From Deltaproteobacteria bacterium (GTDB taxonomy: Bacteria; Bacillota; Desulfotomaculia; Desulfotomaculales; JAGUVT01), in contig JAGUVT010000104.1 in assembly GCA_020062745.1 (NCBI GenBank), positions 1 to 55,604 of the forward strand: 55,604 bases of DNA, written 5' to 3'. Below are positions 24,638 to 53,811 of this stretch, in pieces. A program made the translations under genes and the position numbers. Position 1 is the stretch's first letter; every line of letters starts with the position of its first letter. Below the pieces are notes generated by a model, which was not told where the DNA came from, ran no database searches, and saw only the letters and a list, made by a program, of their open reading frames with translations.

Positions 24638-25428
24638 CTAATCATCCGTTTCCCGGGATTTGCTCAGTCCAATTCTGTTCTCCATGCGCAGCATCACCAT
24701 TTCGTCGTCCAGGCCGTGGCGTAAAAGGTCCAGGCGCGGAGACCCCGCCAGCAGATTCTCCGCGGCGGCCTCTTTGATGCGAAACGGAAACAGGCTCGTG
24801 CTCCCGGCCAGTTCCTTCAGCGGCGCGCATCCGTTGGAACGCGCATGTAAAGAAGCTTCCATCAACCAGGCGGCCAGTTGGAGATCATCAATGCACACGG
24901 ACAGCCCCCGGCAGTAATTCCTTTTGTTTCCGTTTCGCCGAGTACGCCCCAATCAATGTAGGAGCGCAGCACGCGGCGGGCCGCCCGGGATACCGTCTCC
25001 CGCTCCCCGTACTGCTCACGTATCCGCTGCTGGATGTGCGCCGCGGCCGCAGACCCCTGGAGATTCAAAAAGCGGCCGGTGTGGCCCGCCACGGCCGCCC
25101 AAAACGGATAAACGGCCATCACCATCCCCCAATGGACAGCGACCCGGTCCGTTCCGGGAAGGCGTTTCAGCAGCTCCAGTCCGTCGGTTCGCAGGGCCGC
25201 GAGTTCAAGCGGCACATTATGCCAGACCTTCATTAGAATTGTAATAATCTTCTCGCGGTTGCCGCGCTCAGCCTTGCCGCCGACGGACACCTTGTCTTTC
25301 AGCAGTTCCTGCAAGGCTTCACTGACAGCGGCTCTATTGTTGCCGGCCAGGACAAGATTGGCGGTTGTTTCCAGCCACTCCAGGCGGACCCGCTGACTAA
25401 AGCCGATTTGATTCGTGCGGTTGTTCAT
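24638..25428 (-). pseudogene. brxA: BREX BrxA-like protein, interrupted by a frameshift
   Basis: The start ATG overlaps the pglZ stop as ATGA (25428-25425). The first frame gives a helical protein (IGFSQRVRLEWLETTANLVL ... VLRSYIDWGVLGETETKG) and then drifts into nonsense before a stop at 24862. Continuation in the next frame gives YCRGLSVCIDDLQLAAWLME, then a conserved C-terminus ending at 24638. The switch lies near 24925-24935, at an AAAAGG run, and joins the two into about 263 residues. Gene order (directly after pglZ) and the R-x-V-L-R-x-x-x-DWG block fit BrxA of type 3 BREX, a DNA-binding helix-turn-helix protein in other types. Assignment rests mainly on position. A second copy of the 3' part lies at 54607-54794. 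Confidence 0.6.
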
Positions 25429-27449
25429 ATGCTCTTCCTTTCGATCTGGATAAGAGGAACGATCAGCTCCTCGACGGAAATACCGCCGTGGCTGACAATA
25501 CGTTCTCCCACCGGGACAAACGCCTGCCGGGCCGGGGCAATTAGAGGAAGAAAGGTATCCGGCAGACCTGCCGGCGGCCATTCTACAGCGGCCGGGAAAC
25601 GATCCTTTACTTTGTCCCGGAGGATCTTGTCGGAATAGATCCGGACCCGTTCGCCGCGCAGGCCGGCAACCGCCCCTTCCGCGGGACGTCCGCAGCCTTC
25701 GGCTTCAATATTGCCGTGGTCGGAGGTCAGGAAAACGCAAAAACCCCGGTCCAGCAGCAGGTCCAGCAGCGCAGCCAGGTACGGCTGCCGGGCCCACTGA
25801 CGCACTTGATTATACATGCCGGCGGCGCCCAGTTCCATCCCGTGCATAATTTTGTCCACCTTGTCGATAACCAGTCCGGCAACCCTCGCTCCGGGACGGG
25901 AGAGCAGTTCTTCGACAGAATCCAGACTACCGTCGCCCAACCCTCTGGCATATACGGCTTCGTTCGGCGCAAGCCCCTGATCGGCCCAGAACTGCGCCCA
26001 CAGAGCCGGTTCTTTGTCCGTACTCCGGATGCTGTCCGGAAAAAAGATGGGCGGCCTGCCGGCAAAGACAGCCTGGCGCGAAACCGGAGTGATTGACGGA
26101 ATCCAGGCGAATACAGCGTTTTCACGGAAACGGAGACGGGGTTGCCGCGCAGCCAGCGCCTCACGGACGACAATCCACTGGTCGAGGGAAAGCCCGTCCA
26201 CCAGGAGCAAAGCAAGCTTCGCCGGCGGTGACGCGGGCTGAATGCTGAGTAATGAGTGGGCCAGAAAGCGGGGAATATGGTGAAGCATTACCGGCGGAGC
26301 GGCCGGAAGGTTGATCAGTCCGGCATAACGCTTCCGGACCCAGGCGGTAAACCGCTCATCAACGGCCCGGACGAGCGCCTGCAAGCGGCCCGAAACGCCG
26401 TTCATTTCACTCAGTTCCCGGTCTTCATTACTTATCACTTTCGTTTGCGCCCAGCCGCGGGCGAAGTGGAGCCATTCTCCGTGTCTGGCGTCTTCAGCCG
26501 GAATGGAGGGCTCAAGACTTTCGACAAGTTTGGTTAAGCGACAGAGCCTGTCTTCAGCTTGACCGGTTCGAACACCGACGCTCACCCAGGTATTGGCAAG
26601 CGTATCCGCATTCTCGTGGGGTACGGAATGTAGAAGCCCTTCGAGGAACAGATTGTCGATGTAAACCCGGACGTCCTGGTGCTCAAAAGGCAGATCAAGA
26701 GGGCCGTCAATTGCCGGGTCATACGGCTTGCCGGCTTCCCGCAGGTCCGGTTCCCCTCCGGCCGCCACCCGGTCGAGAAAGACCGGCCAGCGCTCCTGCA
26801 GAAACGCAAAGAATGCTTCCCGGTCCGGAACAAGGGCTTCCAGCGACCAGTCGTCAAAGGTATTATTCCGGCGTAAAAGCTGGATGAACCGTTCGTCGAG
26901 CATAGCCGGTACGCGTTGCCCGCGGTAATGCCGGCGGAGAAGCACGCGGAGCAGGTCGGCCGGCTGCTTGATGAACTCGGGCGCAATCCCGAAGACGTGC
27001 CGGAGGACGAATTCCTTCGTGGCGTTGTCCCCAAGTTGTCCGGGCGCGTGCTTTTGCCGCGCCTCATTCAAAGCATCGAGGTCGCCCCGGTCCAGGGCCG
27101 CTACGACCGGATAGCTGAGATGCGGGAAAATATCGCCGAGGTTGAAGGAGAGCCGGCGGCCCGCCTGCAGCAGATCAAACGGCAAAGAACCGGGATCGCC
27201 GGCTTCAGAACGCAATACGACCACCAGGTCCGTCTCTTCGCCCCGGTCCCAGCGGGAACGGAACCCGGACTCATAGGCATAGCGGAAAGCAACGTGATCT
27301 TCAAAAGGGATCAGCTCAAAGCCGCGCTCCCGGATGCCTTCGAGCATCCCCTCCTCAAGCAGCAGACCGTCCGGGTCGGCCACCAGGGTGAGCCGGGCAA
27401 CCCCGGGGGTAAAATCCCGCAGAATCCGGCTGCGCCAGGAATCTTTCAT
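25425..27449 (-). CDS. pglZ: BREX-3 PglZ, alkaline-phosphatase-superfamily protein
   Basis: PglZ is a core protein of BREX phage defence, with an alkaline-phosphatase-like fold whose exact chemistry is debated. The metal-binding pieces are visible in the C-terminal half: LALLLVDGLSLDQW near residue 416 and LTSDHGNIEAEG near 576, with SHGGISVEELIVPLI close to the end, the usual PglZ finish. The N-terminal 350 residues are the helical part specific to BREX PglZ. ATG 27449 is used because GAGGTG lies 9 nt upstream; an in-frame GTG at 27461 is possible. The reading frame is intact, unlike those of brxC, pglX and brxA. It is separated from pglX by the whole CRISPR module. Confidence 0.88.
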   Translation of the reverse strand: MKDSWRSRILRDFTPGVARLTLVADPDGLLLEEGMLEGIRERGFELIPFEDHVAFRYAYESGFRSRWDRGEETDLVVVLRSEAGDPGSLPFDLLQAGRRLSFNLGDIFPHLSYPVVAALDRGDLDALNEARQKHAPGQLGDNATKEFVLRHVFGIAPEFIKQPADLLRVLLRRHYRGQRVPAMLDERFIQLLRRNNTFDDWSLEALVPDREAFFAFLQERWPVFLDRVAAGGEPDLREAGKPYDPAIDGPLDLPFEHQDVRVYIDNLFLEGLLHSVPHENADTLANTWVSVGVRTGQAEDRLCRLTKLVESLEPSIPAEDARHGEWLHFARGWAQTKVISNEDRELSEMNGVSGRLQALVRAVDERFTAWVRKRYAGLINLPAAPPVMLHHIPRFLAHSLLSIQPASPPAKLALLLVDGLSLDQWIVVREALAARQPRLRFRENAVFAWIPSITPVSRQAVFAGRPPIFFPDSIRSTDKEPALWAQFWADQGLAPNEAVYARGLGDGSLDSVEELLSRPGARVAGLVIDKVDKIMHGMELGAAGMYNQVRQWARQPYLAALLDLLLDRGFCVFLTSDHGNIEAEGCGRPAEGAVAGLRGERVRIYSDKILRDKVKDRFPAAVEWPPAGLPDTFLPLIAPARQAFVPVGERIVSHGGISVEELIVPLIQIERKSI

Positions 27450-27465
27450 TTTACGTCGCACCTCT

Positions 27466-28174: not shown

Positions 28175-28501
28175 ACATCTGAGATTACCGGCATCCAATA
28201 TTTCCAACCCACGACATACAACTCGTGACTTGTGACCGAGATTTGCCAGAGGGACCAGAACCCCTGGATTTCTTGAGCAATTCCCAGGATCGAGACGACT
28301 GGAACCGGTTGCCCCTGGACGAAGCGGGGAAGCTGCAGCACCAAACCTCTGACGATCGGTTCCTCCAGGGTAAGGTGGCGGGCGACCGGAATCTCTCCCG
28401 CTGAATGGTTATAATAAAACAAACTATTGATGGTTCTAAAAAACTTAACATGTTATAATAAAAGTTAAAAAAACTATAACGTTACATTCGGGGGGATAAT
28501 G

Positions 28502-29639: not shown

Positions 29640-30506
29640 TTATCCAACCATTCGCCACACACCAAACGGCCCAACCTCTAAATCAAGTTCGCGACCGACT
29701 ATGCTCCCGGGAGCAAAGCAGATTCCATTGAAAACAACGTATTGGCCGGTGTGTCGGTGACTGGTGGCATCCGACCGCCATTCGCGTCCGACAAGCGGCT
29801 CTATGTCACCGGTAGCCGGCAGATTCTCTGCCAAAGCATGAGCCAGTAATCGCGCAGTCATCTCTTCAGTAGCCGACAAGCGGATGACCGGATAATCGTA
29901 CCCATCGTTGAACAAGGCCGCTCCCCCAAACAGTCGGTTATCCTCGGGTTCACAAAGCCGAACCAACTCAATATCGCCCCAACCGTAGCCCCGTTCACCA
30001 CCTATCTGCAGTCGTTCGCAAGCAGCTTGCCAGTCCAACTGGTTATCATCTCTCTCGAACACGTACCCCACCAAAAAAACAGGCTCACATCCATCTACGG
30101 TTTTAGGCGATATGAACTCAACCTCATGGAGCATTCCCACCGCCGCGGATTGATCCGGATAGTTAAGCGCTGTTCCGCTGTAACTGCTGAGAAAACGTTG
30201 TCTGAAACTGGCCGCGTCTTGCCAGAACCAGTCAACCCGGTAATCCTCCCCTGATTTTGTAGCCGGGTAGAAATAAGTAAAAGCCAGGGATTGATGAACC
30301 TGTTGTCCAACACGCTGGTAGTCACGGGAATCGATGGCCGGACCAAGTCCGCTGGCTTGGTCTCGCGTCAACCGCATGGCAAGCGCCCCCCACAGCACGC
30401 GGCCGGTAATATAGGGACGGGTACGCTGCAAGTTGCCCACTTTGCCACAACCAATATGCAGAGAAGAGCGCAGGTGAAAGATAACTTGATACAGGCGCCA
30501 GGTCAT
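29640..30506 (-). CDS. CRISPR type III RAMP protein, Cas5/Cmr3-position
   Basis: Last gene of the CRISPR effector module. The first strand and loop read YQVIFHLRSSLHIGCGKVGN, then RPYITGRVLWGALAMRL, the RAMP pattern of a substrate loop followed by a basic helix. A glycine-rich loop, GGERGYGWGDIEL near residue 175-190, is the RAMP signature that contacts crRNA. It does not read like a standard Cmr3, but it occupies the place where Cmr3, which holds the crRNA 5' handle with Cas10, would be required. ATG 30506 is chosen for AGGGGGA 8 nt upstream; the frame is open to 30542. It is 13 nt after cmr5. Confidence 0.7.
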   Translation of the reverse strand: MTWRLYQVIFHLRSSLHIGCGKVGNLQRTRPYITGRVLWGALAMRLTRDQASGLGPAIDSRDYQRVGQQVHQSLAFTYFYPATKSGEDYRVDWFWQDAASFRQRFLSSYSGTALNYPDQSAAVGMLHEVEFISPKTVDGCEPVFLVGYVFERDDNQLDWQAACERLQIGGERGYGWGDIELVRLCEPEDNRLFGGAALFNDGYDYPVIRLSATEEMTARLLAHALAENLPATGDIEPLVGREWRSDATSHRHTGQYVVFNGICFAPGSIVGRELDLEVGPFGVWRMVG

Positions 30507-30519
30507 GATTTCATTCCCC

Positions 30520-30918
30520 CTAACTGCGCGCTTTTGCGCCATAACGGGCGTAAATCAGCATTTGCTCCAGTATTTCTTTCACCAGCAACAGCCGCTCCAG
30601 GTGGTCTGTGTCCGTCACTTTCTCGGTGATGTGGCGCAACACATCTTCGGCCTCGTTGGATGGCGGTTTACCCCAGCCGAAGCCCAGGTTATCCAGTAAG
30701 TTAAGCATCTCGTCGACCACAATATCGCCGTTTCCCTTCTCTTTGGCCTTCAAGTAAAGGAAGCAAGCGTAGACGCCATTTTCTTGGAGAACGCCTAACG
30801 CTTTGGTGACGGTATTATCTATATCGGCGGGTTTTTTGTCGCTGGTGCGTTGAATAATTTCTTGCGCGTGCCGCGCGGCTAACCGGTCCAGGTTGGATTG
30901 CGTCATACTGCTGCTCAT
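30520..30918 (-). CDS. cmr5: CRISPR type III-B small subunit Cmr5
   Basis: A small helical protein of 132 residues. In Cmr complexes several Cmr5 copies line the target RNA beside the Cmr4 backbone. Seen: a first helix LAARHAQEIIQRT, then NTVTKALGVLQENGVYACFLYLKAK, which corresponds to the Cmr5 stretch in which the surface helix is followed by a small hydrophobic helix, and a C-terminal helix LERLLLVKEILEQMLIYARYGAKA. Overlaps cmr4 as ATGA. ATG 30918 is preferred over 30924 for its spacing to GAGGGGGT. Position between cmr4 and the last RAMP supports the call. Confidence 0.75.
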   Translation of the reverse strand: MSSSMTQSNLDRLAARHAQEIIQRTSDKKPADIDNTVTKALGVLQENGVYACFLYLKAKEKGNGDIVVDEMLNLLDNLGFGWGKPPSNEAEDVLRHITEKVTDTDHLERLLLVKEILEQMLIYARYGAKARS

Positions 30919-31892
30919 TGCCATACCCCCTCGCCATATTTTTGTTCTAAGGGCTTGCCGACAATGGCCATGCGGCCGAAACCGCGCGTGCCCATGCCAC
31001 CGACTCCCAGCCATTCAATCATGCGCAGGCCGGCTTCCGCCACATCCAGCGGTCCATTCCAGCAGCCTCCGGGCAGGACGTTGTTCTTTGACGTTTTATT
31101 CTTGGGAAACGGCCGGCCATCCGCGCCATCCCGATAATCATCCAGTACGGCTTCAGCCACCAGAAAAGTGGTGCGGGGTATCGCTTCGTAGGTAAAAAGC
31201 TTCTTGTCCTCGGCCGCGCCGCGTTCCGGATCTATGGCCACTGATGTGCGCACTTCCAGGTTGCTGTTTACAACCTGACTAAAGAGCACCTCCTGCACCA
31301 GAACCAGGCGCTCTTGCATAGCCTTCCATCGTGGTTCGTCCTTCCACTTGTTTGGCGCGGTCACAGATACTTTACCTCGCATACTCAACATTATCCAGCC
31401 CAGATTAAGATCGTCCTTGTGCTCCCATGTCAACAAAACGGCACTTTTATCCCAAGTATCAGGCACGCCGTTAACGGTAAACCCCGCTTCTTGAAGCCGA
31501 TCAACAGTGCTCACCCAAACCGGCCCGGCCATGGAATGCACCGGGAAAAGCAGTACATGGGCGTCAAAGACATTTACTACGCCGGAGAAGGCAACAGTTT
31601 TATCTTCCTGTCCCGGCGCCTTTTTCAGATAACCAAAGGTGTAGCACACCGGGTCCTGGTCCGGGTTATTGACTTCCCTATGGTCCTGGCCGGCGGCAGC
31701 CGGATTCTCGTACAATTGGGCAGCGTAGGAACGGGCCGCTCCATGCAGGCTGGTGCCGGGTATTTTAGGCACCCTGGTGCCTGGTTCGCGTACAATGCTG
31801 TTGTCGACGCGTCCCAGGCGGTAGCCTCCGGTACCGACATGAACCGGATCGGTGGTCATAAACAGATAACGTCGGCGTTCATAAGTTGCCAT
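30915..31892 (-). CDS. cmr4: CRISPR type III-B backbone nuclease Cmr4 (Cas7)
   Basis: Cmr4 polymerises along the crRNA and cuts target RNA every 6 nt. Family blocks: PVHVGTGGYRLGRVDNSIVR, with Asp30 at the position of the catalytic Asp, then VPKIPGTSLHGAARSYAAQL, the crRNA-binding RAMP loop; GVVNVFDAHVLLFPVHSMAG, highly typical of Cmr4; and the Gly-rich C-terminal loop GVGGMGTRGFGRM. Length of 325 is normal. Starts 15 nt after csx11 with GGAGG, and its stop overlaps the cmr5 start. Target-RNA cleavage should be possible because Asp30 is kept. Confidence 0.88.
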   Translation of the reverse strand: MATYERRRYLFMTTDPVHVGTGGYRLGRVDNSIVREPGTRVPKIPGTSLHGAARSYAAQLYENPAAAGQDHREVNNPDQDPVCYTFGYLKKAPGQEDKTVAFSGVVNVFDAHVLLFPVHSMAGPVWVSTVDRLQEAGFTVNGVPDTWDKSAVLLTWEHKDDLNLGWIMLSMRGKVSVTAPNKWKDEPRWKAMQERLVLVQEVLFSQVVNSNLEVRTSVAIDPERGAAEDKKLFTYEAIPRTTFLVAEAVLDDYRDGADGRPFPKNKTSKNNVLPGGCWNGPLDVAEAGLRMIEWLGVGGMGTRGFGRMAIVGKPLEQKYGEGVWQ

Positions 31893-31907
31893 TCGGATCT
31901 ACCTCCT

Positions 31908-34778
31908 TTATTCCTTTAAGATTTCCATATGCAGCTCAGCCAGATCGGCCAGTTCGCCGCTGACGCCAGCCGCTGTGAGTTTTTCCTGCCATTCTGAAGG
32001 GATGCTCGTCCAGGGTTGATCTTTGAACCAGGTGGCTCCGGCCAGAGTATCGGTTACGAATTGCCGGAACACACCATCACTTTGGGCCTGGTTACCGTCA
32101 TTGCGCCCATACCATGTCTCGCGGGTGGTCTCAATGGCACGAATCACTTGATGACGCTGAGATGTAGCCATGCCCAGCATTAATTTCCAAAGGGCGTCCA
32201 GGCGGTCCAGGTCTTCCAGATAGAAAGGACGGGTTCGGCGCGGGCGGCGGCCATCCTTGCCGTAGCAAATCTCGAAACGCCGGCCGGTAGTGTCCAGGAA
32301 TTCAAAATCAAAGCGGCTGGGCCGGACCCAAATTTTCCACGGCTGATATTTGTTTGGCACCCGCAACTCCGTTACATTTTCCGGCTTTGCCTGTTGCCAA
32401 GTGTCATCAGGTCTGCTACTGATGTGTAAACGTGGATACCATTCATCATGTGTCTTGCAGTCGCCGGCGAGTATGGGCACGCGCCAGGTGATACCGTTTT
32501 CAAAAAGAAGCTCACATTGGCCAGGATTGGGTAAGTCCTTGTCTTTCAACCTCCAGTCTTTCCATTGTTCATCGCCAGCCATATTAAGCATTGAGCGGCC
32601 GGCTTCTAAAACGGCGCGGATGGGCGTGCGACGGGTGCAAAAGACCAGCCCCAGGTACAAGGGAAGCCGGTCGCGCACCCGCCCCATTTGTCGTTCGTAC
32701 TCGCCTTTAACGGCCCGTGCCAGGTCCAATGCTCTGTCGGCCGGCACCAGGATCATGCACACCCACGGTTCAGCCAGCAAGGAAATATCCGGCCGGTAGC
32801 CCCCCAGTTGCTCAACACGCTCGATCTGCACAGTATTCTGACCGGGTTGCTGGAAAGCGGAAGGTTCTAGAATGTTAAAAGTTTGCCCCTGAATGAGGCC
32901 GGCCAGTTCATCCTGGTTTATCCCTGAGCGATGGGCAAAATAAGTCAGGTTTTCGGCCGTCAGGAACCGGTCCTTGGACTTGTCCCAGACGACGCTCAAG
33001 GCTAGACCCTCCACACTAAGTTTATAGGCGTGATATTCGCCCAGATCAGGCAGACTGTTTGCCGCCGGGTAGATGGCCAGGCGAAACTGCCGCTGCCCTA
33101 TGACGCTGGACGTCACCTTAGTTATTACCTGCCGCCAGAAATCCCGGGCCGTTTCGACAATGCGGTAAAGCCGTGCCGGTGAAGGTATTTTGGTTGTACT
33201 GCCGGTAACCTTAATGGTATTCAACAATGTTCCATCCAGCCATCCTTCCAAACCCAGCTTGCTGGTAAACAAAGCCAAACGGCCGTTGTTGTCGGCCACC
33301 TCGTCGGTCCAGATGGTGTTTTGTAAATCACTTGTTGCCCATTCTTGGGAGCGGCGGCCGCGCCGGTCCAGGCAAACGCGGCAGATATTACGTTGTTCGG
33401 CCTTTTCCTGCGTGGCCCATCTCGCCAGTTCCCGCTCCACTTCAGGGGTAGTCCCCCGGCGCGGATAACCCAATGGCCGGATGCCACAGACCGTGCAGGT
33501 TTCGGCGTTCTCGGGCCGTCCTTCGGACCACTCATCTTCAAAAAGGTACAGGTTGTTATCAGCCTGCACCGGAGGTTCTTGCAGTGCCCGTGTCCTTGGC
33601 TCCGCCACCAACCGGCTGACAGCTTGATAATATGATGCTGACTTGCCATCTAACTCACCGGCCGTGACCCGCGCGCCCAGGTGGACCTGAGGGCACAAAT
33701 CGGACGGAAACTGGGCTTGAATTTTATTGCGCAGGGCGGCCATCTCGCTGTTACTATATAAATCCGGAAAAAGATAATAATCGCCGGTTTCATCATGATA
33801 AAAGCGGTTCGCCAAGGCATAGGTCTCCTCTAGTAGCTCTCTTACCTGTTCAAAAGACTTGTCCAAAACCTGACGTATGCCCAGAGCGTCGCTGATTGTT
33901 TCGCAATACATATAGCGTTCCAGCCTGTTCAGGTTAATGCGCAAGGTACGGTAGGGCAGATCATCAAGCGCCGCCGGCCAGCCGTTCTTGAAAATCCAGG
34001 CTGCGGCCGCCTTGGTCATGGTAGCCACAGTATACCCCCAGTCCCATAGCGATACTTCGTTATGAGGCCGCCGGTTGTCGGCCAATCCGCAGCGCATCTC
34101 TGCTTTCATCTTTTCCAACCATTCCTGCCGAACCGACGCAATTTGCTCTATACCAGCCAAAGGCAATGCTATCAGTGCAGCAGTTGTAGTCCCCGTCCCG
34201 ATCCGCTCCTCCAAACCAAAAGGCGTAGCGCGAAATACATCGCTGTAAGGCTGCTTATATTGATCAGGTTCGCTTTCTTTCTCGATATGTGCTGCCCCGT
34301 GAAGACAGCCGACCAAAAGACCCGGCTGCATCTCTTTGCCAAGGGTTTTTTGCCATTCCAGCGGCGAAACCGCTTTTAACCCTATTGCCAGGCCAGGCTT
34401 GGCAACAAAGGGCGATAATTCGGCAAAACTATACACCTGGCCAGTCCAGTCGGTGAACTGAACATTCTTCAAAATGGCCGTCAGATCAGATCGTTCGCCA
34501 AAGGCGCAAGGGATAACACCTGCTTTATTCAGCAAATTTTGAAATTCTTGAACCCCTTCATTGGCCCCACTGACCGACACTGTTATAAATTTCTTATAAA
34601 TGTTAATCTGACGGGGATCCGCCAACAGGTTATGATTATATTGCATAGTAGATGACGGTTCCTGGCTTTTCAGGAACGTATCGCTCAACTTGCCCAAGTC
34701 ATGGATCAACCCCAGCGCTTCCAGCAACAAAATCGTGCGCCGTTGTTTATCTGATGGCTTCCAAAAAGAGTCGCTCAT
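31908..34778 (-). CDS. csx11: Csx11-type Cas10 (large subunit of type III-B CRISPR complex)
   Basis: Large subunit of the effector complex, 956 residues. An HD-like N-terminus carries GLIHDLGKLSD (His26-Asp27), suggesting a single-stranded DNA nuclease. A zinc ribbon lies between residues about 427 and 466 (CTVCG ... CRVC). First palm-like segment near 500 (GRLALFTSKLGLEGWLDG). In the second palm, where Cas10 normally has GGDD, the sequence is MILVPADRALDLARAV (near 670), so the cyclase residues are absent. The following LPLYLGLVFCTRRTPIRAVLEA matches the strand and helix after GGDD in other Cas10 proteins. Size above 900 and association with six RAMP-module genes fit the uncommon Csx11 family. 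Start overlaps the previous gene as ATGA. Confidence 0.82.
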   Translation of the reverse strand: MSDSFWKPSDKQRRTILLLEALGLIHDLGKLSDTFLKSQEPSSTMQYNHNLLADPRQINIYKKFITVSVSGANEGVQEFQNLLNKAGVIPCAFGERSDLTAILKNVQFTDWTGQVYSFAELSPFVAKPGLAIGLKAVSPLEWQKTLGKEMQPGLLVGCLHGAAHIEKESEPDQYKQPYSDVFRATPFGLEERIGTGTTTAALIALPLAGIEQIASVRQEWLEKMKAEMRCGLADNRRPHNEVSLWDWGYTVATMTKAAAAWIFKNGWPAALDDLPYRTLRINLNRLERYMYCETISDALGIRQVLDKSFEQVRELLEETYALANRFYHDETGDYYLFPDLYSNSEMAALRNKIQAQFPSDLCPQVHLGARVTAGELDGKSASYYQAVSRLVAEPRTRALQEPPVQADNNLYLFEDEWSEGRPENAETCTVCGIRPLGYPRRGTTPEVERELARWATQEKAEQRNICRVCLDRRGRRSQEWATSDLQNTIWTDEVADNNGRLALFTSKLGLEGWLDGTLLNTIKVTGSTTKIPSPARLYRIVETARDFWRQVITKVTSSVIGQRQFRLAIYPAANSLPDLGEYHAYKLSVEGLALSVVWDKSKDRFLTAENLTYFAHRSGINQDELAGLIQGQTFNILEPSAFQQPGQNTVQIERVEQLGGYRPDISLLAEPWVCMILVPADRALDLARAVKGEYERQMGRVRDRLPLYLGLVFCTRRTPIRAVLEAGRSMLNMAGDEQWKDWRLKDKDLPNPGQCELLFENGITWRVPILAGDCKTHDEWYPRLHISSRPDDTWQQAKPENVTELRVPNKYQPWKIWVRPSRFDFEFLDTTGRRFEICYGKDGRRPRRTRPFYLEDLDRLDALWKLMLGMATSQRHQVIRAIETTRETWYGRNDGNQAQSDGVFRQFVTDTLAGATWFKDQPWTSIPSEWQEKLTAAGVSGELADLAELHMEILKE

Positions 34779-36079
34779 GCTTCGCTCACCCCCTCTCGCA
34801 ACCGGTCTGCCACACGCTGGGTTATTGTCCTCATCTCGCTCAAGCTAGAAAACGTCCATTCCGATACTGGCGGTGTTTCAATTGAGGTTGGCTCTGTTTT
34901 ATGTTCTGTTTCTTCAATCGTTGCTTCTGCTGGTTGTTGCCCTTCTCGTTCCCACCAGCTTTTTGCCTTGGCGTATAACTGGCTGTCTTTCCTGGTGTAT
35001 TTCTTTCCGCGATTCTCCAGCAAAGCACGGTACTCTGCCTCCAGTTTTATACTGCCGTCCGGCCGGCAAAAGTCAGGGTGCAGTTGCGTGGGTGAAATCA
35101 GATAACGGGGCAGAGCAGGCGCTGGTTGCTCCGTTTCGGGCGAGGTGAGGGTTGGAGTTGCTACATCAGGCAGTCCAGCCCTGAGAGCGATTTTTCCTCT
35201 ACCCATCAATTGGTCCTGTGCCATACCAAAGCCGCTGCTTGTTTTAGCCCCAAAACCGTAGGTGATAAGCATGGCCTGAACTCCTTCAGCCAGTGCTTCT
35301 AGGTCCTGAGCTACTTCAGCGCGCCTTTCGTCCTCTTTTTGTTCAACGGGGCCAAAGGGTACATACAGGAGCAAGAGCGTACCGACTCCTTCAGGCACGC
35401 ATTCCATCAAAATCGGCCCCCGCTCGCCCACGCCGGTTTCACGGCTGTGCGGGTTGATCACTTCCAGGCCAATCTTGTCGAAAAAGGTCGGGTAAAAGTA
35501 GAGGCGTCCAGCCTGATGTTCGTCGCTGTCGCGCGGGCTGCCCAGCAACCGGACGGCGATCTTGTCTTCTTCCTTGTAATTCAACTGCCACATAGCCGCT
35601 CGCAGCGCGCCTTTCCAGCTTGTAGCAGCGACCATTGGCACCCGGAAAATTTTTTCTTTGCGCAGCGGGTTGTCAAGAAGGTAGAAGTCTTTTTCATCCT
35701 TGCTGATATAGGGTTTCTGTAACTTAAAGGGGATGTGAAACATAAAACTGAGCAGCGGCATTTGTTTGATAACTGATATATCCGGGAACAGGTGAAAAGC
35801 ATCTGGGATTGTAGTTGTCTGTAGCTTCTTCTGCCAAACATCACGGATTGAATTGGCAATCTCGGATGCGCGCTTGCTCCAAAACCATAGATAGGCCAAG
35901 TGGGGGTCAATATCCACTGCGCTCTGTGCTGCCTTCGTCATACTATCCTCAGCCTGCCGGCACGCAACCTTGTCTCTTATTTCTCTCGCCTGATTAAGCG
36001 CCATAGCTGTTTGCTCAAGTTCGTTAAAAACATTAGTCAGTCCTGTTTGCCGGAAGGCATAGTAGTCGCGCTGCATCAT
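34775..36079 (-). CDS. CRISPR type III RAMP protein, Cmr6-like
   Basis: A 434-residue RAMP protein. After a helical N-terminus (residues 1-90) it has FRVPMVAATSWKGALRAAMW, the same pattern as the I-P-G-S-S-x-K-G-A-L-R loop of Cmr6, then AGRLYFYPTFFDKIGLEVINP, and the Gly-rich loop LITYGFGAKTSSGFGMAQD near residue 290, which is the RAMP signature. A Pro/Glu-rich, probably flexible C-terminal extension (about residues 320-434) is unusual. Cmr6 caps the backbone at the crRNA 3' end. ATG 36079 has GGAGG 5 nt upstream. The start overlaps cmr1 by 47 nt and the stop overlaps csx11. Confidence 0.7.
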   Translation of the reverse strand: MMQRDYYAFRQTGLTNVFNELEQTAMALNQAREIRDKVACRQAEDSMTKAAQSAVDIDPHLAYLWFWSKRASEIANSIRDVWQKKLQTTTIPDAFHLFPDISVIKQMPLLSFMFHIPFKLQKPYISKDEKDFYLLDNPLRKEKIFRVPMVAATSWKGALRAAMWQLNYKEEDKIAVRLLGSPRDSDEHQAGRLYFYPTFFDKIGLEVINPHSRETGVGERGPILMECVPEGVGTLLLLYVPFGPVEQKEDERRAEVAQDLEALAEGVQAMLITYGFGAKTSSGFGMAQDQLMGRGKIALRAGLPDVATPTLTSPETEQPAPALPRYLISPTQLHPDFCRPDGSIKLEAEYRALLENRGKKYTRKDSQLYAKAKSWWEREGQQPAEATIEETEHKTEPTSIETPPVSEWTFSSLSEMRTITQRVADRLREGVSEA

Positions 36080-37139
36080 CTTCACCTCCCAGACCCAGTA
36101 GACTCTGCGAAAATACCTTAATATCGACGTTGTTAGGCGTAACGGAGTCCCTGGGCGAGTTCATTTCACGCCACACTTGCAAAGTATAATTTGTGCTCAA
36201 GTGTTTATAAATGGCATCTACAACTTTCTCCCGATCCCATTTATCACTGTCTACATCCGCCTGGTCCGGAATCCATCCCCAGATACGCATCAAACCACCG
36301 CAGTAAGGGCGGGACATTTTGACTTTGGCCGCCATCCTCCCGTCCTCGACCGTACCCATGATGAAATGGCGCAGCTTCGTGTTTTGCTGCCCGGCAAAGA
36401 GCTGGCGCAGATCGTATTTGAGGTTAAAAGTGCTCTGATCCGTAGCGTTTTGCAGTTGAATACGGGCCAGAAAAATGTTTTGCAGATTGGGCAGATTGGG
36501 CAGTTTGGGGTATTGGCGGTTGCCGGCCGCAGCTACAAGCCAGTCGTAAAGAGGGCGGGTGTCAACCCGGCCGCTCACCGGTTCAACCACGCCAAACCCC
36601 ATTTGCGCTTTTGCTCCCACGGCCGCCCAATCGGCCACAAATTGTAGCAACCCACCAATGACCCCGGCAGGAAAATATCGATCCAGGCTTTGCATTTGAA
36701 TGGTCAGGTTACCGGATCGCGGCTGGTCTGGGAACCACCAGGTAGGTTTTTTGTTTGTCCTCGAATTAGTGCGATCGGCGCTGATCGGCGTAGGTAATGA
36801 AGTATCCCGTTGAGTTTGATCGATGATTGTCAGGCGGAAGCGACGACGCCAGCCCGTAGCCCCGAAAACCTGGGATACATCACAAAGGCCGGCATCACGC
36901 AGGCGGGCACGTTCATCAGTTGCTTGGGATTTCTTATATTTCTCGGAATCAAAGCCACTGCGTTCATCTTTAGTAGGGTCATTCACCATCCCGCCGAAGC
37001 CACGCATAAATACTTCAAACCACCAGCGCAGACTTCCAATGATGCCCGTCTCGTGGATACGTTCCATTTTGCCCGCTTCTACACCACCTGTCCACAGGGG
37101 CGTTAACGTTCTGAATGCCAATTCCAACTCCTTTTCCAC
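36033..37139 (-). CDS. cmr1: CRISPR type III-B RAMP protein Cmr1
   Basis: First gene of the six-gene module. The N-terminus has the Cmr1 signature: FRTLTPLWTGGVEAGKMERI, then ETGIIGSLRWWFEVFMRGFG, in which the S-L-R-W-W helix is diagnostic. This is followed by CDVSQVFGATGWRRRFRL, then GGLLQFVADWAAVGAKAQMG and FGVVEPVSG, the glycine-rich RAMP loop. Cmr1 sits at the 3' end of the crRNA in the complex. Length of 368 is normal. It begins 63 nt after the metallopeptidase gene, the largest gap in this part of the operon, so the CRISPR module may have arrived as a unit starting here. Confidence 0.86.
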   Translation of the reverse strand: MEKELELAFRTLTPLWTGGVEAGKMERIHETGIIGSLRWWFEVFMRGFGGMVNDPTKDERSGFDSEKYKKSQATDERARLRDAGLCDVSQVFGATGWRRRFRLTIIDQTQRDTSLPTPISADRTNSRTNKKPTWWFPDQPRSGNLTIQMQSLDRYFPAGVIGGLLQFVADWAAVGAKAQMGFGVVEPVSGRVDTRPLYDWLVAAAGNRQYPKLPNLPNLQNIFLARIQLQNATDQSTFNLKYDLRQLFAGQQNTKLRHFIMGTVEDGRMAAKVKMSRPYCGGLMRIWGWIPDQADVDSDKWDREKVVDAIYKHLSTNYTLQVWREMNSPRDSVTPNNVDIKVFSQSLLGLGGEDDAARLLCLPANRTD

Positions 37140-38143: not shown

Positions 38144-41100
38144 TTACCTGCCCTCCCCCATTCGCGTCAGCGCCTGGTCATACCACATCAGCAGCTTGGG
38201 ATCTTCTTGAAGGACGTTTTCGGAAATCTTGCCGGCCACGGCGATGATGGTGGTGTAGTCATGCTCCTGCCACGCCTTCTTGAACCCGGCGCGGACGGCC
38301 TCCAGGCGGAATACCTTCAGGCGCTTCTGTTTGGACTCACGGTACTCCTCGAACTCGCGCAGCAGGGCCCGCTCGCGCAGCTTTTCCAGGTCGCCGGCTT
38401 TGTTCGGATCGGGTACGTACCAGCGGTCCTTTCCCTTGCGCTGTAGCTCCGGGGCGTCCTTGGGCAGGTTGCGCAGTTCCTTGAAGTTGGTGGACAGGTA
38501 GCCGTGAATCTGGCCCGGTACCCCGCCCTTGCCGTCGTAGCGCAGGAAGTTCTGCTCCAGCAGGACCGAAAGCTCCAGGGGTTTTTCGTGTTTCTGCCAG
38601 CCGCCGATCTCTTTAATGAACTGCGGGTGGAGTTCCTGGAAGGTCTGCGGCTTCCTGGTGAGCTGTGCTTTTAGCCACTGGATGGCGGAAGCTTCGTCGG
38701 TGACAAAGAGTGAAAGCTGCAGCACTTCTTTTACGGTCATGCGCTTCTTGTCGTACTCGGCCACCTGGCCGGGGAGGAAATACATCCCGTCGCGCACCGG
38801 GAAGCGCTGCTCCAGCCCGGCGTAAAATTCCGCGGCGGACAGGGGAACGATTATCCCGCGCTGGACGTGGAAGGCCACCATGCGGTCGAAGAGGAGGTAG
38901 TTTAAGCGTTCGGCGACGATTTCCAAACGAAGTCCAATGTCCAAAGTCCCTGGTCCAAAGTCGTTCTGACCTGAGACTTTGGACTTGGGACCAGAGACTA
39001 CGGCAACAGGCAGTTGCCGTAAGTGGGTGCGGACAAAGTCCCAGACGCCGTTTTCCGTGCCGGCTTCGAGTTTGAAGCGCTCTTCAAGGCCGCCGTTGGG
39101 TTTGTAGGCGGAGATAACAAGGTCTTGCTTTACTGCACCGGCCGTGGTCATTTGGTTAAAAGTACCCTGTTTTTTATCAATTGTCCGAACATCGGCGACG
39201 ACAAAGCCTGCGGCTTGAAGCGCTTCCTGAATAGCATTCCATACCCGGTTCTGGGAATTGTGGAATTCGACCGTCATCCAGCGGCCGGGTTTAAGCACGC
39301 GGTAGTATTCCTGGAAGCAGCGGGTCATAAGCTGCTGGTATTCCATAGGCCCTTTGCCTTGAACTTTGTTCTCTATGGTTTCCGGTTTATTGTTAGTAAA
39401 AACCTTGAGCCAGGCTTCCCAGAGAAAGTTTAGCTCGGAGTACATCAGATTGCCGCCGAAGGGCGGGTCGGTGAAGATGTAGTTAGCAAAAACGGTCTCA
39501 TGCATCGATGATGTTAGATCCGCTGTAAAAAGCGAAAACGGGGATGCTACGGGTCGTCTCAGCTCACGTTTTACCATCCGTTGAAGCTTGCCCCTCAGTA
39601 TGTATTCCGGCGAGACCTCAACTTGTTGGGAACCAACGTAAAGCGTACCGCTAAGATATTGGTTGACTTGAGAATAATGCGTAGGCACATATCTAGAGAT
39701 TTTCGAAAATCCAAGGGACGCGTATTGGACAAAAAACATGACGATATTCAGAAGTTTATCCAAAGGGTTTCTTGCAGTTTGGTACAGCGCCCCCAGCACC
39801 CACAAATTCCGCTTCGTATAAAAATGGTGCACATGGGTGAGGCCTATGTCATCGTTGCGCCGTGACTCTTCCCCCTCCGGCATCCGGTCGGTCGGGAACC
39901 AGCAAGGGATTTCGCTGCTTTCGATTTTTTCGATCAGCGCCAGGTCGAATTCGTCGGGCGTTTTCTCGTACCGCTTTTTACCCGCGCTGTAGTTGATGAG
40001 CACGGGGACCTGTTTGGCCTGGCGCACAGTCTGGTTGACGGCCTGATCGAACCGCGTCACCCAGGCGCGTTCCATGGTGCGCTTGGTGAGGCGGGCCCGG
40101 CAATGGGGGCAGGAAAACGTGTCGCGCACTTTGCCGGCGCCCTTGTCCACCGCCGCTTCCCAGAAGATCACTTCGCCCGTTCAATCCGGGCAGACAAAAA
40201 CATCCGACCAGACGGTATAATTGATAGTTCCGAGTCGCGAGCCATAGGCCGCGAGTCGGTCTCTGATTTGCTCTGGTGTCGTGGACTTCCGGATGACCGC
40301 GGCAAGTTCTTGTGCGAGCGACCCGTGACCCGCTGACCCGTGACCCGTTGACTCGTGACCCGTTGACCCGTGACTCACGATGGTGGCGTACATCCAGCCG
40401 CATTCTTCCTCCACCTCCTGTAGAATGCGCCCGGCCTCCTTTTCAAAGGCGGCCACATCCACCGGCGTGTTGTAATTGTAAGCAATGAAGGTGGCGGCGG
40501 GCGACAGGTCGTTCAAAACAGCCCGGCGCGCCCCGAGCTTGGAGAAGGGCCTCCATACCGTGTGGGCGTTCTCATCCGGCTCCGGCGCGTAAACCGTACC
40601 GTCGTCTTCCACCCGGTATCCCAGTGATTCCACTGCTCTCCGATCGCCGCACAGTTGGGCCGCCACCCCCGTCATGCCCGTCCCGCAGAAGCCGTCGAAA
40701 ACCACATCCCCGGGTTCCGTGTAATGCAGGATGTAGCGCATGATCGCCTTGTGCGGCACCTTGGTGTGATACGAGTGGGCGTTGTAGATCGGGTCGTTCT
40801 TGCCCTCGCTCACATCCGCCGCAAACGGTTCGCGCCGGTAGTTGTCCGTTACCGGATCATACGGCCTGCCGTAGTGCTTGATGAAGTCCGCGACGAACGG
40901 ATTCGGACAGGCGGTGTAATACGGCGGGTCGGACAGGGCCAGGATGTCCTCGTCCGAGCCGATGGGGAACCCCTCGATCTTGCGAAACTCCGGGTCGCGA
41001 AGCTTCTCGCGCAGCTTCTCCAGAAAATATTTCCGGCGCTCCTCGTCGTTCGGAAACGTCATGCCGAGGCAAGTTACAGGTCCCGAGTCGCGGGTCGTGG

Positions 41101-41155
41101 GCCGGTCCATTTCAAATAAGGTCTGCTGATAATGTTGTGCATTCTTTTTGGTCAT
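38144..41155 (-). CDS. pglX: BREX-3 DNA methyltransferase PglX with an in-frame TGA
   Basis: PglX methylates host DNA so that BREX tolerates it. The two open segments, 41155-40181 and 40180-38144, are in the same frame, separated by one TGA codon (40183-40181), and together give 1,003 codons. Seen: LSDPPYYTACPNPF near residue 75, SAM-binding VFDGFCGTGMTG near 152, a second DPPF (IFTDPPFGGNLMYSELNFLW) near 560, and a zinc ribbon CPD-stop ... SCPHC around 325-350. The stop occupies the place of the second Cys of the first CxxC. It could be a nonsense mutation or, less likely, a selenocysteine codon. Repeat-rich insertions (40317-40378, 38935-39000) also lie in the gene. Start overlaps the preceding small gene as ATGA. 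Confidence 0.8.
38930..39002. repeat. GTCCAAAGTC repeat insertion inside pglX
   Basis: Four related direct and inverted copies (GTCCAAAGTC, GTCCAAAGTC, GACTTTGGAC, then GGGACCAGAGAC) fill about 70 bp in frame, encoding a low-complexity Gly/Ser/Lys stretch (VVSGPKSKVSGQNDFGPG). It looks like a small palindromic repeat inserted into the gene without breaking the frame. Confidence 0.65.
40317..40378. repeat. CCCGTGA/CCCGTTGA tandem repeat inside pglX
   Basis: About nine imperfect units built on GACCCGTGACCCG(C/T)T are read in frame as SHGSTGHESTGHGSAGHGS. Related units occur at 41541-41599 and 45451-45466 within the same operon. Confidence 0.75.
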
Positions 41156-41526: not shown

Positions 41527-41540
41527 CTTCATTCCTTCCA

Positions 41541-41599
41541 CCCCTGACCCACGACCCGTAACCCGTGACCCACGACCCGTGACTCGTAACCCGTGACCC
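41541..41599. repeat. CCCGTGAC/CCCACGAC repeat between brxC and the four-helix-bundle gene
   Basis: The stretch is built from alternating ACCCGTGACCC and CCACGACCCGT units. It is related to the repeat inside pglX (40317-40378). Translation of this stretch from the open frame above 41526 gives low-complexity RVTGRGSRVTGRGSGV, so I place the gene start downstream. Confidence 0.75.
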
Positions 41600-41603
41600 A
41601 CGA

Positions 41604-44600
41604 CTATTCCAATACAATCCGGACTTTTTCAAGCTCCTTGCCCCTGGTGAGTTCGTCCAGGTATTCCTCAAACCGCTTCTTCATCTCCGCCAGGGTGGCG
41701 GGGGAACCGCCCTTGAGCAGCCCGGCGCGCAGGCCGGCGGTCTTGACCGTCACCTTGAGCAGGCCGGAGAGGGCCTCCTGCAGGGCGTGGATGAAGTCCT
41801 GGCCGGGGTCCTGCGGCAGAGCCCGCGTCTTGATGAAGCTGTCAACGAGGTTACGCGGCTCTGGCTTGAGCAGGTCCAGGTTGCCTCTGGTCGCCGGGTC
41901 TTCCAGGTTGGCAAGCAACGCCGCAGTCCATTCGGCGATCATCTTATCCAACTGCTCATCAAGCTGTTGCAAGACGGAGGCGGCGTTGATTGGACTTTGG
42001 ACCATTTCGTCCGCCGGCCGGAACCCGCAGTGCGGGCACACGGGCGAGGCGTTCAATCCCCGTTCGGTAAGCGTAAAGCAGCTCTTCAAGCCCGCCAGGC
42101 GGTTTTGGAAACCGGTCAGTTGCTGGCGGGGCATGATGTCGATGGCGGAGAGTTTCTGCAGCGCCTTCAGCCGCTCATCGTTCATGAGCCGGGACTTGTG
42201 CTTGTCCTCATTGACGCCCAGCCGCGCCCTGGTATGCAGGTCGAGATACGCCTGCAGGTACGCTTTTTTCAGGCCGGTAAGCTCGCGCTGCGTCTGCTGG
42301 CGGAAGTCCGCCGCGCCGCGCCCGGCTGGATCGCTGAGCTGCCCGAGGACATCCTCGCGCACCGTCTTCATCCTGCCGCTCCATTCGTGCCCGGCGGGCA
42401 GGACCGCTTCGGCTGTGGAGAGGTACGCAGCCGTGGTCCCGAGGGCGGCCGCCAGTTCCTGCAGGGACTCGATCTCTTCCAGAGTCCGGAGCCCCTCGCG
42501 GTGGCCGTTTACCTCCGGGGCGTCGTAACGGAAGTTTTTCAGTTTGCCCGGTGAATTGAACGCCTGTAAAGATTCAAGGAACGACTTCGTTTTTTCCAGT
42601 TGCGAGTTCCGGGCTGTGAGTTCCGGGTCGGAAAACAGCCGTTGCCCCCAGAAGACCGGCCCGTCCCGCAGGTTTTGTATGGCCAGCGCGATGCGGTTGA
42701 CCGTGCCGGTCACGGCCTTTTGGAGTTCGGCAACCGGCTCGTCTTTGTTTTGAGTAACCAGTTGCGCCATGCCCGGCGTGAGCCCGAGCAGCTCGAACAG
42801 TGCTTTAAGCGCCGGCAGGTTCCAGTCCCTGGGGCGTTCGATGTGCTTGAACTGTTCCAGTTCTTCGATGCCGGTCCCGGCCAGTTGGGGAAGGCCGGCG
42901 GCGTCGAACTTCTTGCCCGGAACAGCCAGCACCAGTTCGCCGGAGTAGACCAGCGCCGCCAGGACCACCACGGCCCACGCGGGCTCCAGTCGCAGGGTCT
43001 GCGGCGCCAGGTACTCCACCCCGAAGATTTCCTGGATCAGCTCGGAGCGGTTGACCACCTGGCCGTGGCCCTTCTTACTCAAGATGTCGAGGATATGCCG
43101 GGCGTATTTCGATTTATACGGATCAAGCCTGTCGCCGTCAAGAAGCTCAAGGGCGTCCAGCACTGCGGTGGCTTGTTTGGTCGGCTTTTGCCCGGCGATG
43201 GTCCGCAGCGCGTCCTGGACAGCCTGGGCCTGGTTGGCTCCGGTGATGAGCACTGGAAAGACGGGGTATCCGGGAGCCTGTTCCTGGAAGTGGGCCCCGA
43301 GGCAGATGCCGGCAACGGTGTTTATCAAATTGCGGAAGTTGATGCGTTCGTGGGAGGCGATGCCGGACAAATCGCGGACCGGCTTGTCCCTGGACCACCC
43401 CATTATCGACCTGGTCCGTCCCTGGTAGGTGACCTCGAAGGCCTCATACATGTTTTCCTTCAGCCATTGCAGCAGGTCCCGCAGAAAGCCCGACGCCTTG
43501 GACTCATAGGTTGACTTGGCATGCCCCGAGGCGGTGGAGGCCAGGTCAAGGGCCGCGGCAAAGCTCTTGAGCGCCGTGCGAAAGGCCTCATCCTTGCCCG
43601 CCAGACGCAGGAACAGTTCCTCGGGCTTCTTCTCGTCCTTGAAGCGCGGGGGTTCGAAGGGCTGAATGAAATAAATGTAGAAGTCCCGCGGCGGGACGGC
43701 GGTGGAGCGCTCGTTGGGCGCGCCAAAAAAAAGGTACCCCTGGCGCGCGGCTTTCCGTTCCAGCCATGTAAGCTCGTGCTGCCAGATTTTATAGCCGGTG
43801 ACGTAGGTCTGGTCGGTGCACTCCATGACCCGCTTCAGAGCCTCGTAGTAGTAGCGGTCGAACTGAGAAGCGTCAAGACTGTCGGCGCGCTTTTCGATCA
43901 GGGCGTCGAAATCGTCGGTTTTCTTCAAATCCAGGTAATACTGGCGGTTTTCCGGGTTCGATGAGATAAACTGGCCGCTTACCGTCCTGTGGATCTCGCG
44001 CAGGACGGTCTCCACCTGGGAGAGCAGGTCGTCGGCCGGGTCGCCGCCCAGGTCTTCGATGCCGGGCTGGTACAGGCAGAGAGTGTCTCGCAGTTCCTCC
44101 GCCGTCGCGCCCAAAGGGGCGTAGATATCGCCGGTGGTCAGCCGGTGGACGGAAAGGGCGTGGATCAGCCGCAGCGCCACAGGTTTGTAAGCGGGCCGGG
44201 TAAAAGCCGCCGGATGCGGGCCTCCAGCACCTGGCTGCAGTCGATCACCGCCTTGATGTCCGGCACGGCGCGGAAGGAGGGGTTTTCGCACAGGTTCGTC
44301 CAGTAGCCGTCGTAGGCGATCAGCCCGGGCGGAAGAAGAGGTTGGGGGCCGGGTGATGAATCAATCGCGGGCAGATCGTATTCAAGTATCTTTTTAATTT
44401 CGCGGCTGAGTGTTTTCAAGACTTCGCGTTTCTCTATCGCGGTGACCCGCTCAAAGGTGTCGATATAATCGGGATGTACTGGGAACAGCCGGACGAACTC
44501 GTCCATGCGCTCGTTCATGCGCCCGTAAAATCTGGCGAAGGGGGTGAGGTAGGCACGGATTTTGGCCTGCTGCTCGCCGGTTTTCTTCAGCAGCCGTTCG

Positions 44601-45367
44601 GCCACCACGAACTTGACGTCCTTGCGGGCAATCAGGATTTGCTCGAAGCGGTCTTTTACCCGGCGGATGCTGTCGGCCACGAAGGAGAAGCGGGGGCTGT
44701 CGAAGATAGCCTCCTGCACCCCGGCGATGAAGCGGAAGCGCAGGTCCTTGCAAACTTCGCCAATCTCCCGGAGGAAGTTTAAGTCGAGGATGAGCTCCTG
44801 ATCCTTGCGGCTGCGGAGGTAGTCGAGCAACTCGTCCACCACCAGGAGCAGGCCGTGGTCGGGGTAATCCTGGTGAAAAGCGGCCATCATCTCCTCGAAG
44901 GCCCGCTTGTTGTTGGACACTTCCGCCGCCGATGGAAACGAGTAGTTTACCCCGATAGACGACAGGTACTCCTCCAGTTCGCCCGTGAGAATGTCGCGCA
45001 GGGACATGGTGGTTGCTCCGATTTCGGTGCGCGCCACCTTGAAGCGGCCGCCGATTTTGCCCGCCGCGCCGGCGACGCTGCCATCGTTCAGGTACGGGGA
45101 GAGTTCCCCGTTCTCCGCCAGGGCGGAGATTACCGACATAAGGTGGGACTTGCCGGTGCCGTAGTTGCCGACAACCATAAGTCCCTTGTTGTCGGCCGGC
45201 TGGTCGAACTGAAGCTGGGGAATGACGAGGCCGGTCAGCTTTCCGGCCATCTCCCCGGAGATGACGTAGGTCCGGACAAGCTGCCGCGCTGCGGCCGCCT
45301 CATTGGCGTCCCGCAGTTGCACCACGGTCTCGATGGGTTCGAATTGAATCAGATCTTTGTATTTCAT
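41604..45367 (-). pseudogene. brxC: BREX-3 BrxC (DUF6079) P-loop protein, interrupted by one frameshift
   Basis: BrxC is the large ATPase of BREX. The N-terminal frame (45367-44165) has Walker [13 protein letters not shown], Walker [13 protein letters not shown], and [18 protein letters not shown]. The C-terminal frame, in the next phase, resumes with [16 protein letters not shown] and runs to 41604, with a CPHCG zinc motif near the C-terminus. The phases join at the TTTT run at 44205-44202: adding one T restores R-R-L-F-T-R-P. Reconstructed length is about 1,254 residues, as expected. Either a true inactivating 1-nt deletion or a sequence error. ATG 45367 is placed by GGGGG upstream. Confidence 0.85.
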
Positions 45368-45450
45368 CACGTTTAACCCCCATGCGATTTTGCCTGTATA
45401 TGGCGAGATTTGAGAACTGATTGGTAAGTGAACGTTTCTTCGCCCGTCAC

Positions 45451-45466
45451 CCGTCACTTTTCATTC
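45451..45466. repeat. Short CACCCGTCAC direct repeat at the end of brxF
   Basis: CGTCACCCGTCACTT overlaps the last codons of brxF and the brxF-brxC gap. It belongs to the same GTCACCCG-type sequence family as the repeats in pglX and upstream of the four-helix-bundle gene. Confidence 0.5.
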
Positions 45467-50330: not shown

Positions 50331-50592
50331 ATGCTAAACGAATTCAAAACGTTTCTACAGCAAAAGGGTTCAATTAAGTCCCGGCACATTCCTTTCTACG
50401 TCAAGTGGGTAGCGGATTGTTACGCCATACTTGATGTATCGCCTACCGCACGCCTTCGCAGCGAAGCGAAGAAAGAGTTTTTGTCAAAGATAGCGAAAAA
50501 CCATGAGGACCGGTAGGTCAGGCGGGCCGGTGCGGCGCTGCGGCCTTACGATTACTTCCTTGTTGACGAACTGAAATCTGCTGGGCAGGCGC
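50331..50592 (+). pseudogene. Tyrosine-recombinase N-terminal relic, copy 1
   Basis: ATG 50331 opens a core-binding (SAM-like) domain: LNEFKTFLQQKGSIKSRHIP, YVKWVADCYAIL, and EFLSKIAKNHEDR, then TAG. Reading through the stop gives VRRAGAALRPYDYFLVDEL, the next helix of an integron-type or phage integrase. The catalytic domain is absent. A related fragment lies at 53377-53528. From 50593 to 50766 nothing is recognised. Confidence 0.75.
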
Positions 50593-53309: not shown

Positions 53310-53376
53310 GAGAAATGGCATTGAACGTTACATCAGCAATCTTAGCCATCGTGTTTTCCTTATTTTATACTCAGTC

Positions 53377-53528
53377 AAATGGGTAGCGGATTGTTGCGCC
53401 CTTCTTGATGTATCGCCTACCGCACGCCTTCGCAGCGAAGCGAAGAAAGAGTTTTTGTCACAGATAGCGAAAAACCATGAGGACTGGCAAGTCAGGTAGG
53501 CCGATGCGGCGCTGCGGCTTTAAGATTA
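53377..53528 (+). pseudogene. Tyrosine-recombinase N-terminal relic, copy 2
   Basis: Closely matches 50397-50560. It reads VKWVADCCALLDVSPTARLR, then FLSQIAKNHEDWQVR and TAG, then ADAALRL. Copy 1 has its stop three codons earlier, where this copy still has Gln, and has Arg where this copy stops. The two copies have thus decayed independently. Confidence 0.75.
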
Positions 53529-53811
53529 CTTCCTGCCAGGTATATTCTTGAAAAGGTTGCCTGTTTCCTTTTTTTCTCTTCTATTCACCCACTCCCTGGA
53601 GAGCGCTTCTGCCTGTTCCAGGACAAGTTCGGTGGCCCGGGCCTGCTTATCCGGCGGATAGCCGTAGCGAACGAGGCGCTATTTGTCCAGGCGCGGGCAG
53701 GCATAGTCCTTGGGCAGTACGCCCTTGAGCGAAGGGTTGTCACGCTCGAGCGAGCATGGCCTCATCGACAATCTTGCCGATATTGGGCTGTTTGGCGTTT
53801 CCTTTGACTAC
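53526..53811 (-). pseudogene. Chimeric relic of type I restriction-modification genes (HsdM joined to HsdR)
   Basis: From 53811 the minus strand reads [13 protein letters not shown], then, after a frameshift, [19 protein letters not shown] and TAG, the well-known C-terminal half of N-6 methylase HsdM ([22 protein letters not shown] in intact proteins has Gln at the TAG). Directly after comes [20 protein letters not shown] then AEALSREWV, the C-terminal end of the HsdR endonuclease. The middle of hsdM, hsdS and nearly all of hsdR have been deleted, leaving both ends fused. Confidence 0.75.

What the first reader, a model, noticed from the sequence alone, without database searches (positions are those of the whole stretch)
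40181..40183. In-frame TGA at a zinc-ribbon cysteine position of pglX
The two halves of PglX are in one frame, separated only by TGA. The context CPD-TGA ... SCPHC shows that the stop replaces the second Cys of the first CxxC. Both TGC and TGT become TGA by one change. A nonsense mutation is the simplest reading; a selenocysteine codon is the striking alternative, since Sec typically replaces Cys. The downstream GAAG-TGAT-CTTC is only a weak hairpin, not a convincing SECIS.
Basis: partly seen in the sequence, partly recalled or inferred. Interest (0 to 1): 0.75.

Follow-up and report, generated by a model that had tools for sequence, protein, structure and literature searches.

The report
Stop mutation in a decaying BREX methyltransferase
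A premature TGA cuts the DNA methyltransferase gene (pglX) of a bacterial anti-phage BREX system at a universally conserved cysteine; although this bacterium can make selenocysteine, the codon lacks the RNA signal that selenocysteine needs and the rest of the system is also broken, so it is almost certainly an ordinary inactivating mutation.

Summary
In detail: an in-frame TGA at 40181-40183 (minus strand) splits pglX (PglXI) of a type 3 BREX locus at codon 325, the second Cys of the first CxxC. In 120 of 120 readable homologues the column is Cys (TGC 76, TGT 44). Selenocysteine deserved testing, because the genome has selA, selB, tRNA-Sec(UCA), a Sec-type fdhA and two Sec-type selD. It still fails. 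The SelD and FdhA codons of this order mostly have a strong hairpin whose loop starts 16-20 nt after the UGA; pglX has only weak ones there, one of which recurs in Cys homologues because it encodes FWE. A hairpin at 33 nt meets the loose published rules, but so do 17% of shuffles. No intact gene with TGA here was found elsewhere. The locus is decaying independently: brxC is frameshifted (one frame in 27 of 27 relatives), and the core helicase brxHII survives only as a ~79-residue remnant. A second TGA at this codon sits in a wrecked pglX remnant of a Spirochaetia genome without selA. Best reading: recent nonsense mutation in a dying BREX system. Reads were not available, so a base-call error remains possible.

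The parts
40181..40183 (-). In-frame TGA, codon 325 of pglX, at the second Cys of the first CxxC
40181..41155 (-). pglX N-terminal part (324 aa), up to the TGA
38144..40180 (-). pglX C-terminal part, same frame after the TGA; mechanical GTG restart at 40171 without a Shine-Dalgarno-like sequence
40100..40111 (-). Second, intact CxxC (CPHC) of the zinc-ribbon-like pair
40163..40174 (-). Weak hairpin GAAG-UGAU-CUUC (-1.4 kcal/mol, loop 10 nt after UGA); not a SECIS
40156..40166 (-). Hairpin CUUC-UGG-GAAG (0.0 kcal/mol, loop 18 nt after UGA); same DNA in 12 of 120 Cys homologues, encodes FWE
40133..40154 (-). Hairpin with loop 33 nt after UGA (-8.6 kcal/mol) that formally passes the loose bSECIS limits, as do 17% of shuffles
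41604..44291 (-). brxC/pglY (DUF6079) C-terminal part, separated by a frameshift near 44200 from its N-terminal part
44165..45457 (-). brxC/pglY (DUF6079) N-terminal part
28180..28425 (-). Remnant of brxHII helicase (profile 723-801 of 933), the only one in the genome
45454..45984 (-). brxF
25425..27461 (-). pglZ of BREX type 3, full length
24862..25581 (-). brxA-like open frame
29640..37139 (-). Type III (Cmr/III-C-like) CRISPR effector genes lying between pglX and the brxHII remnant

Best explanation
The TGA is a recent nonsense mutation (one base change in a TGC or TGT cysteine codon) in pglX of a type 3 BREX anti-phage locus that is being lost. Translation ends after 324 of 1003 residues, inside a conserved CxxC, so no full-length methyltransferase is made. 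It is one of three lesions in the operon: a brxC frameshift and near-total loss of the brxHII helicase are the others. Shown: the stop, the conserved Cys, the frameshift, the helicase loss, and the lack of a hairpin of the kind this lineage's Sec codons have. Inferred: that the product is non-functional, and the order of events (helicase loss would have freed pglX and brxC from selection).
For: Column Cys in 120/120 relatives; no other genome of 399 in the phylum sample with TGA in this motif, none in viral contigs; no lineage-like SECIS; brxC frameshifted while 27/27 relatives have one frame; brxHII reduced to ~79 residues with no other copy in a 99.65% complete genome; TGA at the same codon in a wrecked pglX remnant in a Spirochaetia genome lacking selA; TGA is the ordinary stop of seven intact genes nearby.
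Against: The rest of pglX is clean: only 1 of 108 strongly conserved C-part columns is violated and dN/dS is alike in both parts, so the break must be recent. The hit codon is exactly a Cys codon in a genome that decodes Sec. Raw reads could not be checked.
Confidence: 0.87

Rival explanations
1. Sequence or assembly error: the real codon is TGC or TGT and the consensus base is wrong.
For: The genome is a draft in 148 contigs; the difference is one base, and the frameshift in brxC is one indel, both error-like; the rest of pglX looks under selection.
Against: It would need two separate errors in one operon, and the loss of brxHII cannot be an error of this kind.
Confidence: 0.07
2. The TGA encodes selenocysteine: PglX carries a CxxU in its zinc-ribbon-like motif, and SelB reads through with the help of a downstream SECIS.
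For: selA, selB, tRNA-Sec(UCA), Sec-fdhA and two Sec-selD in the genome; the codon is Cys in all relatives; the frame after it is clean; a hairpin at spacing 33 formally passes the published limits.
Against: In 58 Sec codons of the order the median hairpin at spacing 15-20 is -7.6 kcal/mol, against -3.5 for pglX, a value reached by 20% of Cys homologues; 17% of shuffles pass the loose limits; Rfam finds a SECIS family at fdhA but not at pglX; no intact TGA-bearing relative; partner genes broken.
Confidence: 0.03
3. PglX is made as two chains that assemble: the C part restarts at GTG 40171 just after the stop.
For: A GTG lies four codons after the TGA, in frame, and the C part is open to its end.
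Against: No Shine-Dalgarno-like sequence before that GTG; the break removes a conserved Cys and lies inside the CxxC pair; the operon is broken elsewhere.
Confidence: 0.02
4. The UGA is read as cysteine by a tRNA-Sec-like tRNA-Cys (selC*).
For: The genome has a second tRNA-Sec-like gene next to selD, and some selC* tRNA-Cys in other bacteria have a UCA anticodon (PMC7609411).
Against: Its anticodon loop here reads GCA, the normal Cys anticodon; the only tRNA with UCA that was found is tRNA-Sec; TGA ends seven intact genes nearby.
Confidence: 0.01

Closest known systems
Type 3 BREX (brxF, brxC, pglXI/brxXI, brxHII, pglZ, brxA)
   Same: brxF, brxC (DUF6079), pglXI, pglZ type 3 and brxA are all recognisable, in the known order
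   Different: pglX has a stop, brxC a frameshift, brxHII is only a remnant; a type III CRISPR effector cassette lies between pglX and the brxHII remnant
Bacterial selenoproteins with a CxxU motif (Cys-to-Sec conversions of thiol proteins)
   Same: In-frame TGA where all relatives have Cys, forming CxxU, in a Sec-decoding genome
   Different: No lineage-like SECIS hairpin, no TGA-bearing intact relative, a zinc-ribbon-like pair rather than a known redox site, and a broken operon
Pseudogenes of defence systems, such as the third pglX copy of locus L115
   Same: Loss of reading frame, with TGA at the very same codon
   Different: The L115 remnant is far more degraded; the window's pglX has a single stop

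Membership tests
Bacterial selenoprotein gene | Sec machinery in the genome (selA, selB, selC, selD) | tested here: met
Bacterial selenoprotein gene | In-frame TGA aligned with Cys in homologues | tested here: met
   120/120 Cys
Bacterial selenoprotein gene | SECIS hairpin after the UGA like those of the lineage's known selenoproteins | tested here: not met
   the loose general limits are passed by one hairpin at spacing 33 but also by 17% of shuffles
Bacterial selenoprotein gene | TGA-bearing, otherwise intact homologues in other Sec-decoding organisms | tested here: not met
Bacterial selenoprotein gene | Selenium in the full-length protein | not testable with these tools
   needs 75Se labelling or mass spectrometry
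PglXI/BrxXI methyltransferase of type 3 BREX | Family profile over the whole length (TGA read through) | tested here: met
   PADLOC PglXI 1537.5 bits, residues 10-1001
Functional type 3 BREX | Six core genes intact, brxHII included | tested here: not met
   pglX stop, brxC frameshift, brxHII remnant only
Pseudogene | Stop or frameshift where relatives have an open frame | tested here: met
Pseudogene | Relaxed selection after the stop | tested here: inconclusive
   no excess of damage in the C part, so recent if real

The most novel reading that the evidence does not exclude
PglX of this Sec-decoding bacterium is a selenoprotein with a CxxU metal or redox site, read through with a weak or atypical SECIS: selenocysteine in a DNA methyltransferase of an anti-phage system, of which a search of the held papers for PglX with selenocysteine gave no example.
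Probability: 0.03. Interest if true: 0.85.

Novelty: already known. Interest (0 to 1): 0.15.

Why it matters
As found, it is one more example of a defence system in decay. It matters mainly as a caution: a TGA at a conserved Cys in a Sec-decoding genome is not enough to call a selenoprotein. The SECIS elements of the lineage's own selenoproteins and the health of neighbouring genes decide it. If Sec were real here, it would tie phage defence to selenium supply.

Tried and rejected
Absence of Sec machinery as an exclusion test: it fails, the machinery is present. The generic bSECIS limits as a decisive test: too loose here (17% of shuffles pass, and one true SelD codon reaches only -6.6), so the lineage's own SelD and FdhA codons served as yardstick. 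My simple geometric hairpin rule is not fully sensitive either: at least eight of the 58 true Sec codons have no hairpin by it. A combined SelD+FdhA covariance model was not built because MAFFT put the two families out of register. A first extraction of Sec codons used a wrong pattern and returned nothing (repaired in 34 and 35). A search of plasmids and viral contigs found nothing. Internal stops in other pglX loci were mostly at the end of the alignment or in remnants.

Full report
Observation. On the minus strand, window 38144-41155 is one frame of 1003 codons broken only by TGA at 40181-40183, codon 325. Read through, it is PglXI of type 3 BREX (PADLOC PglXI, 1537.5 bits over residues 10-1001). 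The TGA replaces the second Cys of CPDC; the partner CPHC at 40100-40111 is intact.

The column in relatives. 45 relatives from whole genomes of the order and phylum and 75 from GTDB contigs all have Cys here: 76 TGC and 44 TGT. The closest (L047, 78% identity; L073, Peptococcaceae SCADC1_2_3, is the same gene) has TGC and nearly the same DNA around it. A pattern for this motif with TGA matched one of 399 genomes of the phylum, the window's own, and no viral contig.

Machinery. The genome has selA, selB, tRNA-Sec with anticodon UCA, fdhA with one internal TGA and two selD with one internal TGA each. In the order, nearly every selD carries the TGA and most fdhA do. So Sec had to be tested at the RNA.

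SECIS. The published bacterial model asks for a 3-9 nt apical loop, a 4-16 bp upper stem, G in the first two loop positions, 16-37 nt from UGA to loop and at most -7.5 kcal/mol (PMC13188914, read). In 58 Sec codons of this order (32 selD, 26 fdhA) the best hairpin at spacing 15-20 has median -7.6 kcal/mol and a median closing-pair probability of 0.95; pglX gives -3.5 and 0.38, and 20% of the Cys homologues reach -3.5. A second hairpin, CUUC-UGG-GAAG, is at the right spacing (18) with GG in the loop but is worth 0.0 kcal/mol, and the same DNA is in 12 of 120 Cys homologues because it encodes FWE. A third, at spacing 33, reaches -8.6 and formally passes, but 17% of shuffles of the stretch pass as well, and 6 of 120 Cys homologues do. 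The 63-nt fold is no more stable than shuffles (z 0.56). Rfam finds SECIS_3 at fdhA and no SECIS at pglX; it also misses the two selD, so that negative is weak.

State of the locus. brxC/pglY is split: profile positions 1-380 of DUF6079 lie in 44165-45457 and 378-1238 in 41604-44291, in different frames. In 27 of 27 relatives the two parts are in one frame, and the relatives read straight across the junction. The helicase gene brxHII survives only as positions 723-801 of a 933-position profile at 28180-28425, and a search of the whole genome (99.65% complete) gives no other match. BrxHII is described as a core component of type 3 BREX, present in 77% of such systems (PMC12839542, read). So the operon has three lesions, of which the helicase loss cannot be a base-call error.

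Age. The C-terminal part violates 1 of 108 strongly conserved columns, and dN/dS against the closest relative is alike before and after the stop (0.24 and 0.27). The stop, if real, is recent. A clean frame after it is therefore expected and is not evidence of read-through.

A natural control. Locus L115, from a Spirochaetia MAG, holds two full-length pglX matches and a third, wrecked remnant with TGA at the same codon (CPE-TGA-AGEVVF), next to a frame change and followed by many stops. That genome has no selA above the family cut-off (best 36 bits, cut-off 268). TGA at this codon can thus arise by plain decay.

Other readings. A restart at GTG 40171 has no Shine-Dalgarno-like sequence before it. 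Reading UGA as Cys would need a tRNA-Cys with anticodon UCA; the selC*-like tRNA found has GCA. TGA is the stop of seven intact genes nearby (brxA, pglZ, cmr4, cmr6, the M78-like gene, the 23S-IVP-like gene, brxF). A sequence error cannot be excluded without reads.

Conclusion. The best explanation is a recent nonsense mutation in a decaying type 3 BREX locus of a Sec-decoding bacterium (0.87); sequence error 0.07, selenocysteine 0.03, split protein 0.02, UGA read as Cys 0.01. These weights are judgements, not computed.

Noticed in passing
own genome contig C47:1642-1734 (L008 1501-1593; L070 1642-1734): A second tRNA-Sec-like gene (Rfam tRNA-Sec, 50 bits) just downstream of a Sec-type selD, with an anticodon loop CCGCAAA (GCA, Cys) and what looks like U73 before CCA; it resembles the published selC* tRNA-Cys, and ARAGORN does not call it.
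   Followed up: partly
window 41604-45457: brxC/pglY is split by a frameshift near 44200.
   Followed up: yes
window 28180-28425: Remnant of the BREX helicase brxHII, about 79 of 933 profile positions, the only one in the genome.
   Followed up: yes
window 29640-37139: A type III (Cmr, Cas10c of III-C) CRISPR effector cassette sits between pglX and the brxHII remnant, interrupting the usual BREX gene order.
   Followed up: partly
window 40320-40374 and 41540-41604: Short tandem repeats of GACCCGTGACCCGTT-like units inside pglX (in-frame 15-nt units, coding SHGSTGHESTGHGSAGHGS) and at the start of the neighbouring 23S-IVP-like gene.
   Followed up: no
L115 1571-1743: A wrecked third pglX remnant in a Spirochaetia MAG has TGA at the same Cys codon.
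   Followed up: yes
window 50400-50560 and 53374-53534: A 161-nt direct repeat, 92% alike, 2974 nt apart, with further shorter shared pieces nearby, possibly from copies of a mobile element.
   Followed up: no
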